Virus record (IMG/VR): IMGVR_UViG_3300036795_000011
Span: 1-24,887 of that record
Direction: 5' to 3' (one strand)
DNA: 24,887 bases
DNA from: a virus
Shown here: positions 8-17,286 of the stretch, piece by piece
Layout: each line of letters starts with the position of its first letter
Position numbering within the stretch: the stretch's first letter is position 1
The notes under the pieces: model-generated
Database searches by the model: none
Told to the model about the DNA's origin: nothing
The model's input: the letters and a program-made list of their open reading frames with translations, nothing else
Made by a program: the position numbers and the translations under genes

Positions 8-403
8 TCACTTCGAGCTCCGAGCGAACTCGTCGAGCGCGCTCACCGGGATACGCCACAGCTTTCCGACCTTCGCCGCCTGAAGCCGTCCTTGCTCACA
101 CGCTTTACGCACGCTTCGTTGCTCTTTTCCCAGCCGCTTCGCTGCGAGTCGCGTACCTACCGACTCACCAACGATGCGCTGCGAGGCCGTTTCCGGAACC
201 AGTTTGGTACCGGAACGGTTCCGGTTGAGCGTGCCAGCGGTTCCGGTACCGCGGACCTCAACAGCAACCGACTGGAACTCATCGACGAGCGGGCGTAACC
301 ACGCGGGTAAGCCTCCGACCGTCGACTCGTGCTGACGGAAGATCGCCGCGATCGCCGGCACGCAATGATCCGGCACCAGAATCCCGCTGGGGATCACCGT
401 CAT
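8..403 (-). CDS. Helix-turn-helix DNA-binding protein (excisionase/MerR-like HTH)
   Basis: The protein is 131 aa from the ATG at 403. The last 50 residues form an excisionase-type winged HTH: a VGTRLAAKRLGKEQRSVRKA helix pair, the turn EQGRLQAAKVGK, then LWRIPVSALDEF. This is the usual layout of HTH_17/Xis-like domains that bind DNA and bend or repress it. The N-terminal 80 residues match nothing I recognise. A GTG at 424 would add seven residues, but AGGTG sits about 4 nt before the ATG and only 2 nt before the GTG, so I prefer the ATG. It is transcribed away from the late operon, as expected for a regulator at the edge of the structural genes. It could be an excisionase, a repressor or a late-gene regulator; the sequence does not decide. 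Its coding sequence contains striking inverted repeats (191-250). Confidence 0.7.
   Translation of the reverse strand: MTVIPSGILVPDHCVPAIAAIFRQHESTVGGLPAWLRPLVDEFQSVAVEVRGTGTAGTLNRNRSGTKLVPETASQRIVGESVGTRLAAKRLGKEQRSVRKACEQGRLQAAKVGKLWRIPVSALDEFARSSK
191..250. repeat. Cluster of GGTACCGGAAC / GGTTCCGGTACC inverted repeats
   Basis: Three related palindromic elements lie within 60 bases inside the HTH gene: TTCCGGAA (191-198), CGGAACGGTTCCG (211-223, perfect around one central base), and the pair GGTACCGGAAC (206-216) with GGTTCCGGTACC (239-250), which are reverse complements of each other across a loop of about 22 nt. A further half copy, ACCGGAACG, lies in the intergenic DNA at 476-484. The set could be an operator cluster, a hairpin in the HTH mRNA, or a codon-level by-product of a Gly/Thr/Asn/Arg-rich linker. 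Confidence 0.5.
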
Positions 404-450
404 GAGCACCTGCCGAACACACACCTAGCCGCGTAGACCCCGGGCGGCGA

Positions 451-12217: not shown

Positions 12218-14197
12218 ATGACTGACAACGATGTCGTCGTCCGGCTCCTGGTCCGTGATGACGGATCGGTGGAACTGAAACGGTTCCAGTCCCAGGTAGC
12301 TGCTACGAAGGCCGAGGTTGCCGGGCTCGGCGGCGCCGGGTCGTCGCTGGGCAACCTGTTTGACTCGCTGGACGGTAAGACGGGGAACCTGTCGAATCAG
12401 ATGCTCGGGCTCAACCGGAGCCTCGCGTCAGCGTCCGGGACGTTGCGTCACGACCTGCTCTACGGCGTGCGTGACCTGACCCTCGGGCTGACCGCGGCTG
12501 CTGGTGCGGCGACGTATTTCGGGTTGAAGGCTGTCGACTCCTTCCAGCACACGCAAGCAGCGTTCTCGGTTCTGACCGGGTCGATGCAGAATGGCAAGGC
12601 GCTCTACAACCAGTTGATGGCGTTCAACCTGAAGTCGCCGTTCGACATGCAGCCACTCGCCTCAAGCGAACAGACCCTGCTCGGGTTCGGCATCGGCCAG
12701 AAGGCATCGGTCGCTGATCTGAAGGCGATCTCGAACGTCGCCGCGGTGCAGCAGGACCCGAACGAGGCCCTGTCACGGATGGCGCTGGCGATCGGCCAGA
12801 TCAATCAGTCCGGTGTTGTCCGCGGCCAGGACCTCAACCAGCTCGTCCAGGCCGGTTTCCCTGCCTACGGGCTGCTCAGCCAGATCTCGGGCGGGTCGGT
12901 GCAGCAGTTGCGTAAGCAGATGGCGTCCGGTAACGGGATGGACCCGTCGAAGTTCTTGGCTGCGCTCGCGGATCCGAACAACCCGGAACTCAGCAAGTAC
13001 GGCGGCGCCGCGAAGGCGATGAACCAGACGATCTCCGGTCAACTGTCGAACCTGACGACAGAGGTTCGGCAGACCGCGATCAACGCGTTCCACCCGATGG
13101 CCGACGAGCTCATCAAAGAGATGCCGCAACTGACGAAGACGTTGCAGGGGATGACCAAGGAACTCGCCCCAGACATCGCCTCGTTCGGGATGGACATCAT
13201 CAAAGGCGCAGAGCACATCCTGCCGATCCTGACGCCTATCGTCCATTCGCTGCTTCAGGGCATGGACGGGCTCATGCAAGCCGGTGGGCCGTTCCTGCGT
13301 GAGTTGCAGAACGTCGACCCGCAGGTCACGTCGGCGCTCGATGACTTCTTCACGACCCTGGCCGGGGAGGAACCGGAGTTGGCGGGGATCTTCGGTGATC
13401 TGCTGCAGGTGCTGCCGTTGTTCATTACTGATCTCGGTGATCTGCTGGTGCTGGCGGACCCGTTGTTGAAGATGCTCGATACGTTCCTCGGCTTCAGACC
13501 CGTCCAAGGCATCATGGCGGACCTGCTTGTCGGGCTGCTCGCGTACAAGACGCTTGCCGGGCCGATCGAGATGCTCATGAAGTTCGGCACAGCGTTGCGT
13601 GGCGCGGCCGGTGCCGAAACCGCACTTGCGGCTGCTGAGGTCCGTAAGAAGGAAGCCGATGCGCTGCCCGACGTCCAGGGGCCTACTGGCGGCGGACCCG
13701 CCGGTTCGGGTGGGAGCGCCCTTTCTCGGCTCGCCCTGACAGGGATCGGTGCCCGCGAGTTGTTCGCAATGGGTCTAGCTGGCAGCCAACCTGACGTCCG
13801 GAACCCCGGAAGTTATGACATCGCCGGCGGCTCCGCGCACGGCGGTCTCACCCTGTTCGGTACGCCACCGACGACGCTTGCGGGGCAGGAGGCGTTGTTC
13901 CATCAATACAAGGGCAACTCGGCCGCGCTGCAGGACCTTGCTATCAAGTTCCCGTCTGCTGCGAGAGCTCTCGGAATGTCAGGCTCGGGTGGTTTGGGGA
14001 TCACGCCGGCGCTTGTGGCCGCGGCGATCCACAGTGACCCGCGCCTTGGGCGCGTAGTTGGTAAGACCGGATCAACCGTCAACGTTCATGACGGGGCGAT
14101 CACGATCCAGGTGAGTGATTCGAAGAACCCGACCGAGACCGCTCAATTCATCCGTCAAGAGTTGAACAAGTGGATCGAAGAGCAGCAGGACCGTTGA
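12218..14197 (+). CDS. Tape measure protein
   Basis: The protein is 659 aa, with GAGAGGGG about 9 nt before the ATG. Residues about 108-160 carry the tape-measure N-terminal signature: SFQHTQAAFSVLTGSMQNGK, then FNLKSPFDMQPLASSEQTLL and GFG. A hydrophobic segment, GLTAAAGAATYFGLKAV (about 90-106), and another near VQGIMADLLVGLLAY are the usual membrane-seeking parts. The remainder is helical and Gln/Leu-rich, with a Gly-rich linker (GPTGGGPAGSGGSA). It sets tail length and is ejected first into the host envelope. No lytic enzyme domain is fused here. The hub gene starts 1 nt after its stop. Confidence 0.9.
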   Translation: MTDNDVVVRLLVRDDGSVELKRFQSQVAATKAEVAGLGGAGSSLGNLFDSLDGKTGNLSNQMLGLNRSLASASGTLRHDLLYGVRDLTLGLTAAAGAATYFGLKAVDSFQHTQAAFSVLTGSMQNGKALYNQLMAFNLKSPFDMQPLASSEQTLLGFGIGQKASVADLKAISNVAAVQQDPNEALSRMALAIGQINQSGVVRGQDLNQLVQAGFPAYGLLSQISGGSVQQLRKQMASGNGMDPSKFLAALADPNNPELSKYGGAAKAMNQTISGQLSNLTTEVRQTAINAFHPMADELIKEMPQLTKTLQGMTKELAPDIASFGMDIIKGAEHILPILTPIVHSLLQGMDGLMQAGGPFLRELQNVDPQVTSALDDFFTTLAGEEPELAGIFGDLLQVLPLFITDLGDLLVLADPLLKMLDTFLGFRPVQGIMADLLVGLLAYKTLAGPIEMLMKFGTALRGAAGAETALAAAEVRKKEADALPDVQGPTGGGPAGSGGSALSRLALTGIGARELFAMGLAGSQPDVRNPGSYDIAGGSAHGGLTLFGTPPTTLAGQEALFHQYKGNSAALQDLAIKFPSAARALGMSGSGGLGITPALVAAAIHSDPRLGRVVGKTGSTVNVHDGAITIQVSDSKNPTETAQFIRQELNKWIEEQQDR

Positions 14198-14198
14198 G

Positions 14199-16100
14199 AT
14201 GCCGACGCTCAGCGCGACCTCGATAGCGCAGTACGCGTTCACTGTCGGTTTCCGGGGTGAGAGCGTGGTGACTATCACCGCGATCTGCGGTGCCGAGTCG
14301 GGGTTTCAGTACGGGTCGGAGACTGACACCGGCACGGTGTCCGGCCCGGCTCAGATCAACTATTCGGCGCATCCGCAGTACGACCGGGACAAATTGACGA
14401 ACGACCCCAGCTACAACTTGCGGGCCGCTTATACGATCTCCAACGGCGGTAACAACTTCGGTGCGTGGGACACCTACGACTCGCCGCCAGCGCCCAAGGA
14501 CCCCGGCAATGGTCGGTACCGTCAGTTCCTCCGGGTGGCGCGGATCGCCGCGGCGAAGGTCGACACCACCATCACCGCAGCTCCGCTCCCTCAAGGCAAG
14601 GGCAGCACCCCGTATCGGGGGTTCCTGCCGCCGGATAACGAGAAGGCGATCGATCTCACCATCGCCGGCAAGCAGGCACGGTCGGCTCTCGGGTACTCGC
14701 TGGTGGCTGCTGACGTGCAGTTCACGAATACTGAGGCGAGCCAACTCAGCCTGACGTTCGACGACAACGACTTCCTGATCTTGCAGCGGTACCAGTTCAC
14801 GGTCGGACCGACCGGAACGCCGATCGAGTATGCCGACCAACGATGGCGGATCCAGTCCCTTGCCACCCAGCCAACGGACAAGGGTCCTCAGACTGTGATG
14901 GTGTGCCAGCCATCCGGTGTGATGCGGATGAAAGGGCTCACACCGAACCCTGGAAAGAGGATCAGCCCTACCGACTACATGGCGGGGATCGCGCAGGAAG
15001 CCGGTTTGGACTTCGTCGGCGAACCCACCGCGACCCGGCAAGACATCGGACCGAAGAAGATCCCGGATCCCTCCACCGGCCAGAAACGGTATGAGAACGC
15101 CTGGGAAATAGGACAGCGGCTCGCCGCCAATCATGACCTCGTCGCTTATGAGTCCCGCGGGACGTACTACTTCGCGACACCCGCGTTCATCGCCAAGCAG
15201 GCGAAGCTCTGGTACGTGTTCATCGGCAAACTCGACGCCGATTACGATGCGCTCACCGACGCACAGAAGGACAGCGCCACGATCCATGTCGTGGAAGCCA
15301 TCGGCTGGCCGTCGATCGGCACCAAAGCCCAAGGGGTCGGGGTGAAATCCCAACGGACGCTGTCGTGTCAGATCCGCCGCGGGCAGGGCAAGCAGCTCCG
15401 CGCCGGGGACCGGCTGCTGATCGGGGTCGTCCCCCAACTCTCAGGCGGACCACCGCTCGCTGTGACATCCGTTCAGTGGGACCCCACCGACATCGCGGCA
15501 GGCCCAGTCTCCATCGAGGCAGCCGACCTCACCTCATGGGCCAGCCAGTCCACCGACCAAGGTGACGCCACGGCGAAGGACGGCGGACAGACCAGCGGCC
15601 GCGGCATCGCCAAGAAGGGAACCGCGAGCGCGCTCGACTTTGTCACCTTCGCTCTCGCGCAACGCCACGACCACTACCAGTACGGCGCGACACCGTCGCC
15701 GACCGACCCGAACCCAGACGCTGAGGATTGTTCGAGCCTGGTCCAGTGGTCTGCGGCGCAGACGGGGGTGACGATGCCCCGGACATCCGGTGAACAATGG
15801 CAGTTCTGCAAGTCGCTCGAGATCAGTGTTGAGAAGGCATTGAACACTCGCGGCGCCCTGTTGTTCATCGACTCCTCCGACGGGACCCCCGGTGGGGAGC
15901 ACGTCGCGATCAGCCTTGGTAATGGCCGACAGGACATGGCCGCGCACACGTCGCATGCACCGCTGAACAAGCAGGTAGCCGTGTGGACGACCACGGTTAG
16001 CGAGTGGGACCGCGCCGCACTAATCCCGGGGATGAGCTACGGGAGCGGCGGTGTAGTGATCCCTGGCGGCACTGACCGACATGCCGGAACACCCTTCTGA
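14199..16100 (+). CDS. Baseplate hub with N-terminal transglycosylase-like and C-terminal NlpC/P60 domains
   Basis: The protein is 633 aa with three parts. Residues about 8-112 resemble a lytic transglycosylase: ITAICGAESGF with E33 as likely catalytic acid, VSGPAQIN, and NLRAAYTISNGGNNFGAWDT. Residues about 145-450 are beta-rich and look like an XkdQ/gpD-type hub (IDLTIAGKQARSALG, QLSLTFDDNDFLIL, GDRLLIGVVPQLSGG). Residues about 478-600 are an NlpC/P60 peptidase: EDCSSLVQWSAAQTGVTMPR with C511, and GEHVAISLGNG with H568. Together they should dock the spike and cleave both glycan strands and peptide stems during infection. A linker (QGDATAKDGGQTSGRG) precedes the peptidase. The ATG follows the tape-measure stop by 1 nt. 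Domain borders are estimates. Confidence 0.85.
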   Translation: MPTLSATSIAQYAFTVGFRGESVVTITAICGAESGFQYGSETDTGTVSGPAQINYSAHPQYDRDKLTNDPSYNLRAAYTISNGGNNFGAWDTYDSPPAPKDPGNGRYRQFLRVARIAAAKVDTTITAAPLPQGKGSTPYRGFLPPDNEKAIDLTIAGKQARSALGYSLVAADVQFTNTEASQLSLTFDDNDFLILQRYQFTVGPTGTPIEYADQRWRIQSLATQPTDKGPQTVMVCQPSGVMRMKGLTPNPGKRISPTDYMAGIAQEAGLDFVGEPTATRQDIGPKKIPDPSTGQKRYENAWEIGQRLAANHDLVAYESRGTYYFATPAFIAKQAKLWYVFIGKLDADYDALTDAQKDSATIHVVEAIGWPSIGTKAQGVGVKSQRTLSCQIRRGQGKQLRAGDRLLIGVVPQLSGGPPLAVTSVQWDPTDIAAGPVSIEAADLTSWASQSTDQGDATAKDGGQTSGRGIAKKGTASALDFVTFALAQRHDHYQYGATPSPTDPNPDAEDCSSLVQWSAAQTGVTMPRTSGEQWQFCKSLEISVEKALNTRGALLFIDSSDGTPGGEHVAISLGNGRQDMAAHTSHAPLNKQVAVWTTTVSEWDRAALIPGMSYGSGGVVIPGGTDRHAGTPF

Positions 16101-16116
16101 ACGGATGAAGGAAATT

Positions 16117-16572
16117 TCAGCGAACGGTGGCACTCACACGCATATGGATCACGCCGTTCTTGCTTGTCCCTCTCCAAATCGCCGTACACGAGTAGCCGGA
16201 TTGCAGTAGCGCACCGAACGAGTTCTGCGCGGATACTTCGCCAGCAACCGTGTACCGCGTCCGTGTAACTGGATATGCAGTTGTCGAATCGAACTTCGCC
16301 GTGTCGGGTGCCTTCAAGATTTCCTTCACGCGTTCGTGGCAGAGCGTTTCGGCGTTGATCTTGACATCGAACCGAGACGGCTTGTCTAAGGGCCTGCCCT
16401 TCGGGATTGGCACCGGCGCGGTGGCCGTCATAGCGCTGTCGGAATGTGACCCAGCGAAGCCACCCGCTATCGCTAGAAGGACCGCGACCCCCACGACGAT
16501 AAACGGCTTCGGATGCTGTCGGGCCAGACGCCGAAGACGATCCATCAGCGTCGGAGGGTTTGGCTCGCTCAC
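16117..16572 (-). CDS. Antisense single-pass membrane protein (candidate moron)
   Basis: The protein is 151 aa from a GTG, read against the tail operon and convergent with the hub (16 nt apart). Residues 11-22 are basic (DRLRRLARQHPK), 23-41 form one hydrophobic helix (PFIVVGVAVLLAIAGGFAG), so the topology is probably N-in, C-out. The outer domain contains LCHERVKEILKAPDTAKF, YTVAGEVSAQNSFGALLQSG and YSCTAIW; C78 and C129 could form a disulfide. This C-x-x-x-VK-x-x-LK-x-P-x-TAKF...AQNSFGA pattern recurs in bacterial proteins of unknown function. Hand-counted GC is about 56 percent over 16141-16380, lower than neighbours. Function is unknown; a role in superinfection exclusion or host surface change is only inference. 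Confidence 0.75.
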   Translation of the reverse strand: MSEPNPPTLMDRLRRLARQHPKPFIVVGVAVLLAIAGGFAGSHSDSAMTATAPVPIPKGRPLDKPSRFDVKINAETLCHERVKEILKAPDTAKFDSTTAYPVTRTRYTVAGEVSAQNSFGALLQSGYSCTAIWRGTSKNGVIHMRVSATVR

Positions 16573-16607
16573 CCCGGCACCTTATGGCCAAGATGTCCAA
16601 TTGTCAG
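16573..16607 (-). promoter_or_regulatory. Promoter of the antisense membrane-protein gene, probably leaderless
   Basis: On the minus strand CTGACA (16607-16602) is a 5/6 match to the -35 consensus, followed by a 17-nt spacer and TAAGGT (16584-16579), which fits the actinobacterial TANNNT -10. Six bases later comes the GTG start at 16572, so transcription would begin at or next to the start codon and give a leaderless mRNA. AAGG inside the -10 could instead act as a ribosome binding site if transcription starts further upstream. On the plus strand the -35 element overlaps the AGGAG of the next tail gene. Confidence 0.6.
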
Positions 16608-16617
16608 GAGTGCGGCG

Positions 16618-17286
16618 ATGCCATCAGTAGTGGTCTCGATCGTCGCGGCGAGCGCTCAACTCGGCCACAGGCACGCGGTAATCAAATGTGGCGGCGACCG
16701 GATCGTGCTGCCAATCACGTCACCGAACGTCGATCACGGCGGGCTTGCCGGCGACTGGAAGACGGTTGTACGCCCGTTGGACAAGCCTCTGATCGGCATG
16801 GCCGGGCTACAGCTCGCGACCGACAAGGTCACATGCACCATCCAGGCCGACGACGGCAGTTCCGTCGAGTCGACCTTGAAGCGGCTGGTCAGGTTCGCGC
16901 AGGACGCTGACCATCACGTCAGCATCGCGAACTTCGGTTCGTTCGCGGCGGGTCCGTGGCACATCACGGATCTTGATATCGCGAGCGACCGCCGCAGGTT
17001 CGGCACGAACCGGATCACGCGCGCCCAGGTCACGATGACGCTGACCGAATCGACACCTGATCCGGATCCGAAGGCGACCAAGCCGAAGGCGACCAAGTGG
17101 GGTCGGCGTAGCGTGTGGGGAAGCGCCACGATGGTCCGCACCTACATCGTGAAGGCGGGAGACACTCTGCCATCCATCGCGGTGAAGTTCTACGGTCACG
17201 CTGACGACTGGCATTCGATCGCCTTAGCCAACAGCATCACCAATTCACGGTCGATCAAAGTCGGACAGAAACTACTTCTTCCATGA
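16618..17286 (+). CDS. LysM-containing tail/baseplate protein (XkdP-like)
   Basis: The protein is 222 aa from the ATG at 16618, chosen because CAGGAG lies 8 nt upstream; an in-frame ATG at 16513 lies inside the antisense gene and lacks that site. The N-terminal 145 residues are beta-rich (VIKCGGDRIVLPITSPNVDH and GPWHITDLDIASDRRRFGTN). A Lys/Thr/Pro linker (KATKPKATKWGRR) leads to a LysM domain at about 174-222 (TYIVKAGDTLPSIAVKFYG, then IKVGQKLLLP). LysM domains bind N-acetylglucosamine in peptidoglycan. In contractile phages and PBSX-type elements such proteins sit next to the hub and probably anchor or position it. The stop overlaps the next ATG. Confidence 0.85.
   Translation: MPSVVVSIVAASAQLGHRHAVIKCGGDRIVLPITSPNVDHGGLAGDWKTVVRPLDKPLIGMAGLQLATDKVTCTIQADDGSSVESTLKRLVRFAQDADHHVSIANFGSFAAGPWHITDLDIASDRRRFGTNRITRAQVTMTLTESTPDPDPKATKPKATKWGRRSVWGSATMVRTYIVKAGDTLPSIAVKFYGHADDWHSIALANSITNSRSIKVGQKLLLP

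What the first reader, a model, noticed from the sequence alone, without database searches (positions are those of the whole stretch)
16117..16607. Leaderless antisense membrane-protein moron inside the baseplate operon
A single-pass protein with an outer two-cysteine domain lies opposite the tail genes. It has lower GC than its surroundings and its own promoter: CTGACA, 17 nt, TAAGGT, 6 nt, then GTG, so transcription would start at the start codon. Morons with their own promoters are often expressed from silent prophages and change the host envelope or block other phages. This one combines an unnamed domain with a leaderless design.
Basis: partly seen in the sequence, partly recalled or inferred. 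Interest (0 to 1): 0.72.

Follow-up and report, generated by a model that had tools for sequence, protein, structure and literature searches.

The report
Antisense membrane protein among phage tail genes
A small gene placed backwards among this phage's tail genes encodes a membrane-tethered protein of a widespread, unnamed family; many unrelated phages carry the same domain backwards beside their tape-measure gene, so it is probably a shield that resident phages use to block DNA entry by rival phages, but nobody has tested this.

Summary
The gene is real. Window 16117-16572(-) encodes 151 residues: a cytoplasmic stub, one membrane helix and an ordered outer domain (residues 66-151) whose two cysteines co-occur across the family, as disulfide partners would. 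It matches PHROG 13160 (E 1.5e-14; all 39 relatives scanned match it), a family without function, Pfam, NCBIfam or PADLOC name. A pattern scan of IMG/VR gave at least 120 stretches with the domain, 106 non-redundant. Nine of them, plus Gordonia phages Kita, Clark and Sidious and a Deinococcus plasmid prophage, carry it as a lone antisense gene at the 5' end of the tape-measure gene. The tree implies several independent arrivals there. Here it lies one gene further on. Other members sit by integrases, repressors or toxin/immunity loci. Best reading: a lysogen-expressed, membrane-tethered cystatin-like domain that excludes superinfecting phages at DNA injection; it works like HK97 gp15 or Ltp but is not homologous to them. 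No experiment supports this yet. "Moron" is supported. "Leaderless" is not established: the promoter-like site is unique in the window, but its -10 overlaps an AGGTG Shine-Dalgarno. The empty-site test cannot be done in this lineage; in Gordonia phages the equivalent site is empty in SoilAssassin.

The parts
16117..16572 (-). antisense gene, 151 aa, GTG start; stub - membrane helix - linker - cystatin-like outer domain
   Evidence: (PHROG 13160, 1.5e-14)
16447..16503 (-). membrane helix, residues about 24-42; basic N-terminus suggests N-in, C-out
   Evidence: helix 24-38; sequence
16120..16377 (-). outer domain, residues 66-151; Cys78 and Cys129 a probable disulfide
16578..16582 (-). AGGTG Shine-Dalgarno candidate, aligned spacing 7 to the GTG
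16602..16607 (-). -35-like CTGACA; complement overlaps the LysM ribosome-binding region
16579..16584 (-). -10-like TAAGGT (TAnnnT), 6 nt before the GTG; overlaps the Shine-Dalgarno candidate
12218..14197 (+). tape measure gene (context; proposed target class)
   Evidence: PF20155 3e-20
14199..16100 (+). tail hub protein with lysozyme-like and NlpC/P60 domains, convergent neighbour
16618..17286 (+). LysM baseplate protein, divergent neighbour, AGGAG Shine-Dalgarno

Best explanation
The gene is a moron: a self-contained antisense cassette in the tail region that can be transcribed in the lysogen while the late operon is silent. Its product sits in the cell membrane by one helix and holds a small, probably disulfide-bonded cystatin/NTF2-like domain outside. 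It most likely excludes superinfecting phages by engaging the tail parts that carry DNA through the envelope, the tape measure or its partners at the membrane, and so stops injection, as HK97 gp15 and Streptococcus Ltp do. Shown here: gene, domain, topology by prediction, family breadth, recurrent antisense siting beside tape-measure genes. Inferred: expression in lysogens, exclusion as function, tape measure as target.
For: Nearly all carry a membrane helix or lipobox. Cysteine pair: 42 both, 49 neither, 11 discordant, Fisher 5e-17 uncorrected for kinship, pointing to an oxidising outer location. Nine of 106 lie antisense with the 5' end of a PHROG-confirmed tape measure as neighbour, one antisense at a tape measure's 3' end, two on the same strand directly before it (L082, L125). 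Same siting in Kita, Clark, Sidious and Deinococcus pDATS02. These do not form one clade: 11 changes for 13 rows, at least 4 forced by well-supported branches. Other members adjoin integrase or repressor (L012, L004, L144) or polymorphic-toxin/immunity loci of M. abscessus prophages; such loci are reported as lysogenically expressed (PMC8092301). Known injection-blocking exclusion proteins are membrane-anchored and overcome by tail or tape-measure changes (PMC10883804). Kita and relatives encode integrases (PMC4982280).
Against: No expression or exclusion data for any member were found. The window gene is one gene away from the tape measure, not adjacent. The window record is a 24.9-kb fragment without an integrase, so a temperate lifestyle is unproven. 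About 90 of the 106 loci have other or unresolved contexts, so tail siting is a minority pattern, and no formal enrichment control was run. Cystatin/NTF2-like folds are common and show no function.
Confidence: 0.5

Rival explanations
1. Lysogenic conversion without injection block: the domain binds or masks an envelope component or receptor, changing adsorption or wall properties.
For: Same topology would serve. Some members have an N-terminal zinc ribbon before the helix, like TcaA-type envelope proteins, which two members match weakly.
Against: Does not explain repeated siting beside the tape-measure gene.
Confidence: 0.22
2. Inhibitor of an envelope protease or chaperone: the cystatin-like domain inhibits or recruits a host factor needed by phages or by the cell.
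For: Best structural match is a designed cystatin fold, Z 10.1 over 76 residues.
Against: A shared fold shows no function; that match is an artificial protein, and no cystatin inhibitory motif was tested.
Confidence: 0.12
3. Late-expressed or regulatory role, such as modulating lysis timing or antisense control of the hub gene.
For: The transcript would run antisense into the hub gene if it is not terminated; the one terminator-like site found lies about 120 nt inside the hub gene and is no more than chance.
Against: A conserved protein domain across phages with different neighbours argues that the protein, not the antisense RNA, matters.
Confidence: 0.08
4. Neutral passenger gene with no selected function in this phage.
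For: GC differs from its surroundings, as for a recent arrival.
Against: Domain core, both cysteines and the NSFGA motif are intact.
Confidence: 0.08

Closest known systems
Gordonia phage Kita gp16 / Clark gp17 / Sidious gp16 (hypothetical or 'lipoprotein')
   Same: Same domain (hhalign against Kita: probability 99.1, E 1.2e-18); lone antisense gene in the tail operon.
   Different: Short lipoprotein rather than membrane helix; lies between tail assembly chaperone and tape measure.
HK97 gp15 (superinfection exclusion moron)
   Same: Membrane protein encoded in the tail region beside the tape measure; blocks injection, and hybrids with other tail tube/tape measure genes escape it (PMC10883804).
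   Different: 62 aa, sense strand, no outer domain of this kind; no sequence relation.
Ltp of phage TP-J34
   Same: Membrane-anchored exclusion protein whose target is the tape measure protein (PMC3952083, PMC10883804).
   Different: Lipoprotein with a repeat domain; the window protein has no lipobox and no Pfam match.
Cutibacterium acnes phage gp41
   Same: Signal/transmembrane N-terminus plus cystatin/VirB8-like domain; proposed exclusion protein (PMC11480721).
   Different: Not detectably homologous by sequence, different PHROG (1908), sits in a run of non-structural genes in PA6.
SNIPE
   Same: Membrane-bound; acts at DNA injection and associates with tape measure proteins (PMC13190303).
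   Different: A nuclease; no nuclease domain was found in the window protein.

Membership tests
PHROG 13160 / 2320 (unknown function) | profile match over the outer domain | tested here: met
   E 1.5e-14 and 4.6e-10; 39 of 39 aligned relatives match 13160
PHROG 13160 / 2320 (unknown function) | C..V..LK.P..A.F and NSFGA core with C in the third strand | tested here: met
phage moron | inserted between genes that adjoin in relatives | tested here: inconclusive
   Relatives have order TMP-LysM-hub, the window TMP-hub-gene-LysM, so no empty site to compare. In Gordonia phages the chaperone/TMP junction is empty in SoilAssassin and filled in Kita
phage moron | composition unlike its neighbours | tested here: met
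   GC in lowest 1.1%, GC3 0.68
phage moron | own promoter active in the lysogen | not testable with these tools
   promoter-like site only
leaderless gene | no Shine-Dalgarno before the start codon | tested here: not met
   AGGTG at aligned spacing 7; it would be used only if transcription starts upstream of it
leaderless gene | transcription start at the start codon | not testable with these tools
   needs 5'-end mapping
HK97 gp15 exclusion proteins | sequence homology | tested here: not met
   different PHROG
HK97 gp15 exclusion proteins | blocks phage DNA entry | not testable with these tools
   phenotype
Ltp lipoproteins | lipobox anchor | tested here: not met
   no lipobox cysteine in the window protein's N-terminus
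Ltp lipoproteins | Ltp repeat domain (a Pfam family) | tested here: not met
   no Pfam match in the window protein; only zinc-ribbon-type matches in relatives
C. acnes gp41 type | sequence homology | tested here: inconclusive
   hhalign with a single gp41 sequence finds nothing
C. acnes gp41 type | membrane anchor plus cystatin/VirB8-like domain | tested here: met
   cystatin design Z 10.1, IcmL-like 8.3, VirB8 7.7

The most novel reading that the evidence does not exclude
This is a large, undescribed class of tape-measure-linked exclusion proteins: a secreted cystatin-like domain that moves repeatedly into antisense positions beside the injection gene, so that guard and target travel together while the guard alone is expressed in the lysogen.
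Probability: 0.33. Interest if true: 0.78.

Novelty: new variant of a known kind. Interest (0 to 1): 0.56.

Why it matters
Membrane-anchored exclusion proteins are known one by one. Here one unnamed domain, found in phages of very different base composition and neighbourhood, shows a repeated antisense link to the tape-measure gene. That gives a genomic signature for finding exclusion genes and a direct, cheap prediction: expressing such a gene should block phages with the matching tape measure. Kita, a cultured integrase-bearing phage whose infection has been followed by RNA sequencing (PMC6426606), makes the test possible at once.

Tried and rejected
Leaderless start as a conclusion: kept open, because the -10 overlaps a Shine-Dalgarno. 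Generic promoter scan: no site passed its stricter rule. Single-protein scans of IMG/VR with the antisense protein, the sheath and the LysM protein found no relatives; alignment A2 was too divergent to scan. Empty-site test in the window's own lineage: impossible, gene order differs; the one bacterial prophage relative found (Jiangella muralis, L147) has TMP-LysM-hub and no antisense gene there. PHROG 13160 search of that genome gave nothing, and controls did not ring either, so no conclusion. Known defence family: no meaningful PADLOC match. Homology to HK97 gp15, C. acnes gp41 and the Howe gp17 lipoprotein: none detected. Solved structures by sequence: none. Literature searches found no paper on this domain or on its antisense siting.

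Full report
What is there. The window is a 24,887-base viral contig holding head, contractile-tail and baseplate genes of an actinobacteriophage-like myovirus; its sheath is about 38-41% identical to the best matches in Gordonia, Arthrobacter and Brevibacterium phages. The structural genes I named all run on the + strand. The ORF 16117-16572 on the - strand fills the 517-nt gap between the hub gene and the LysM gene. An in-frame TAA four codons upstream fixes GTG 16572 as the first possible start.

It is a gene. The protein matches PHROG 13160 at 1.5e-14 and PHROG 2320 at 4.6e-10, both of unknown function. It has no significant Pfam, NCBIfam, PADLOC or PDB relative by sequence. tblastn found 60 Gordonia phage records with a relative. 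After removing near-copies 106 remain; simple hydropathy rules give 93 with a membrane helix or lipobox, 16 of these with a zinc ribbon.

Architecture. The AlphaFold2 model from 39 aligned relatives gives helix 24-38, a disordered linker and an ordered unit of one helix and four strands, pLDDT above 90 from about residue 71 to 130. The unit aligns best with a designed cystatin fold (Z 10.1), then IcmL/VirB8-like and NTF2-like proteins around Z 7-8; Foldseek gives no confident solved relative, but its best viral matches are Gordonia phage Sidious 'lipoprotein' and other phage proteins. The helix cysteine (78) and strand cysteine (129) are present or absent together: 42 both, 49 neither, 11 discordant, Fisher 5e-17 without correction for kinship. 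That fits a disulfide and so an outer location.

Position in other phages. In Kita, Clark, ThankyouJordi and Bosnia the relative is a lone antisense gene between tail assembly chaperone and tape measure; likewise Sidious; in a prophage in Deinococcus plasmid pDATS02 it is antisense at the 5' end of the tape-measure gene. Among the 106 IMG/VR loci I took neighbours with long reading frames and scanned them. L065, L073, L077, L084, L089, L108, L113, L123 and L063 have the gene antisense with the 5' end of a tape-measure gene as its divergent neighbour. L099 lies antisense at a tape measure's 3' end. L082 and L125 lie on the same strand directly before it, as HK97 gp15 does. L018, L047 and Yersinia phage P840 have a member near the tail-tip J gene. 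Twelve of 106 directly beside the tape measure is a lower bound, since many contigs are cut and only long reading frames (mostly 450 residues or more) were scanned. I have no formal control. If genes were placed at random in genomes of about 60 genes, about three would be expected; that figure is my own rough estimate. In the tree the antisense-at-tape-measure members need 11 changes for 13 rows (shuffled mean 12.4), at least 4 of them forced by well-supported branches. Many forks are unresolved and the window's own branch is long.

The junction as a site. At the same chaperone/tape-measure junction SoilAssassin has nothing and the genes overlap, while Howe has an antisense lipoprotein gene (gp17, 175 aa) unrelated to this family. 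So different exported proteins occupy one antisense slot. In the window the slot is one gene further on, between hub and LysM. Relatives order these genes TMP-LysM-hub (GMA6, Bumble, ChisanaKitsune, Jiangella prophage), so the gene sits at a rearranged junction and an empty-site comparison is not possible.

Lysogeny. Other members adjoin integrase or repressor genes (L004; L012; L144), and in M. abscessus prophage prophi104-2 a member follows the polymorphic toxin and immunity genes near attP. PMC8092301 reports such toxin/immunity loci to be expressed in lysogens; it does not report on this gene. Kita and its relatives encode integrases (PMC4982280). The CarolAnn paper followed Kita infection by RNA sequencing, but the passages I read do not mention gene 16 (PMC6426606).

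Promoter and start. CTGACA-17-TAAGGT-6-GTG is the only such arrangement before any start codon in the window. From base composition I estimate about 2e-4 for a given start (hand calculation), so it is unlikely to be chance if this start alone is considered. But AGGTG lies at Shine-Dalgarno distance inside the proposed -10, and the -35 is the complement of the LysM ribosome-binding region. Of the relatives inspected, L084 has CTGACA-17-TATAAT 47 nt upstream plus a Shine-Dalgarno, and Deinococcus has AGGTG at spacing 9. Either the site is a promoter with a leaderless transcript, or AGGTG is a ribosome-binding site on a longer transcript. Sequence cannot decide.

Mechanism. [quoted passage not shown] PMC3952083). 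C. acnes phage gp41, with the same architecture and a cystatin/VirB8-like domain, is a proposed exclusion protein (PMC11480721). I therefore take superinfection exclusion at the injection step as most likely (0.5). It works like those systems if right; it is not a member of the gp15 or Ltp families. Expression, exclusion and target remain inferences.

Noticed in passing
L148 (Gordonia phage Howe) 2934-3461 and 1597-1944: Two further antisense genes in Howe's tail region: an unrelated 175-aa lipoprotein at the chaperone/tape-measure junction and a 115-aa protein before the chaperone.
   Followed up: partly
window 12218-17286: Gene order TMP-hub-LysM differs from TMP-LysM-hub in GMA6, Bumble, ChisanaKitsune and a Jiangella prophage; the antisense gene lies at the changed junction.
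   Followed up: partly
window 8-424 (-): 138-aa protein whose C-terminus weakly matches a phage DNA-binding family (PHROG 6401, E 3e-4) on the - strand at the contig end; looks excisionase-like.
   Followed up: partly
window 14199-16100: Hub protein carries both a lysozyme-like SLT_3 domain and an NlpC/P60 domain.
   Followed up: no
L142 4324-4752: M. abscessus prophages carry a family member right after the polymorphic toxin and immunity genes near attP.
   Followed up: partly
L082, L125: Family members on the same strand directly before the tape-measure gene, the place of HK97 gp15.
   Followed up: partly
L018, L047, L143: Family members close to the tail-tip J gene.
   Followed up: no
e.g. 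L023, L046, L075: About 16 of 106 members have a zinc ribbon as well as the membrane helix, a TcaA-like layout.
   Followed up: no
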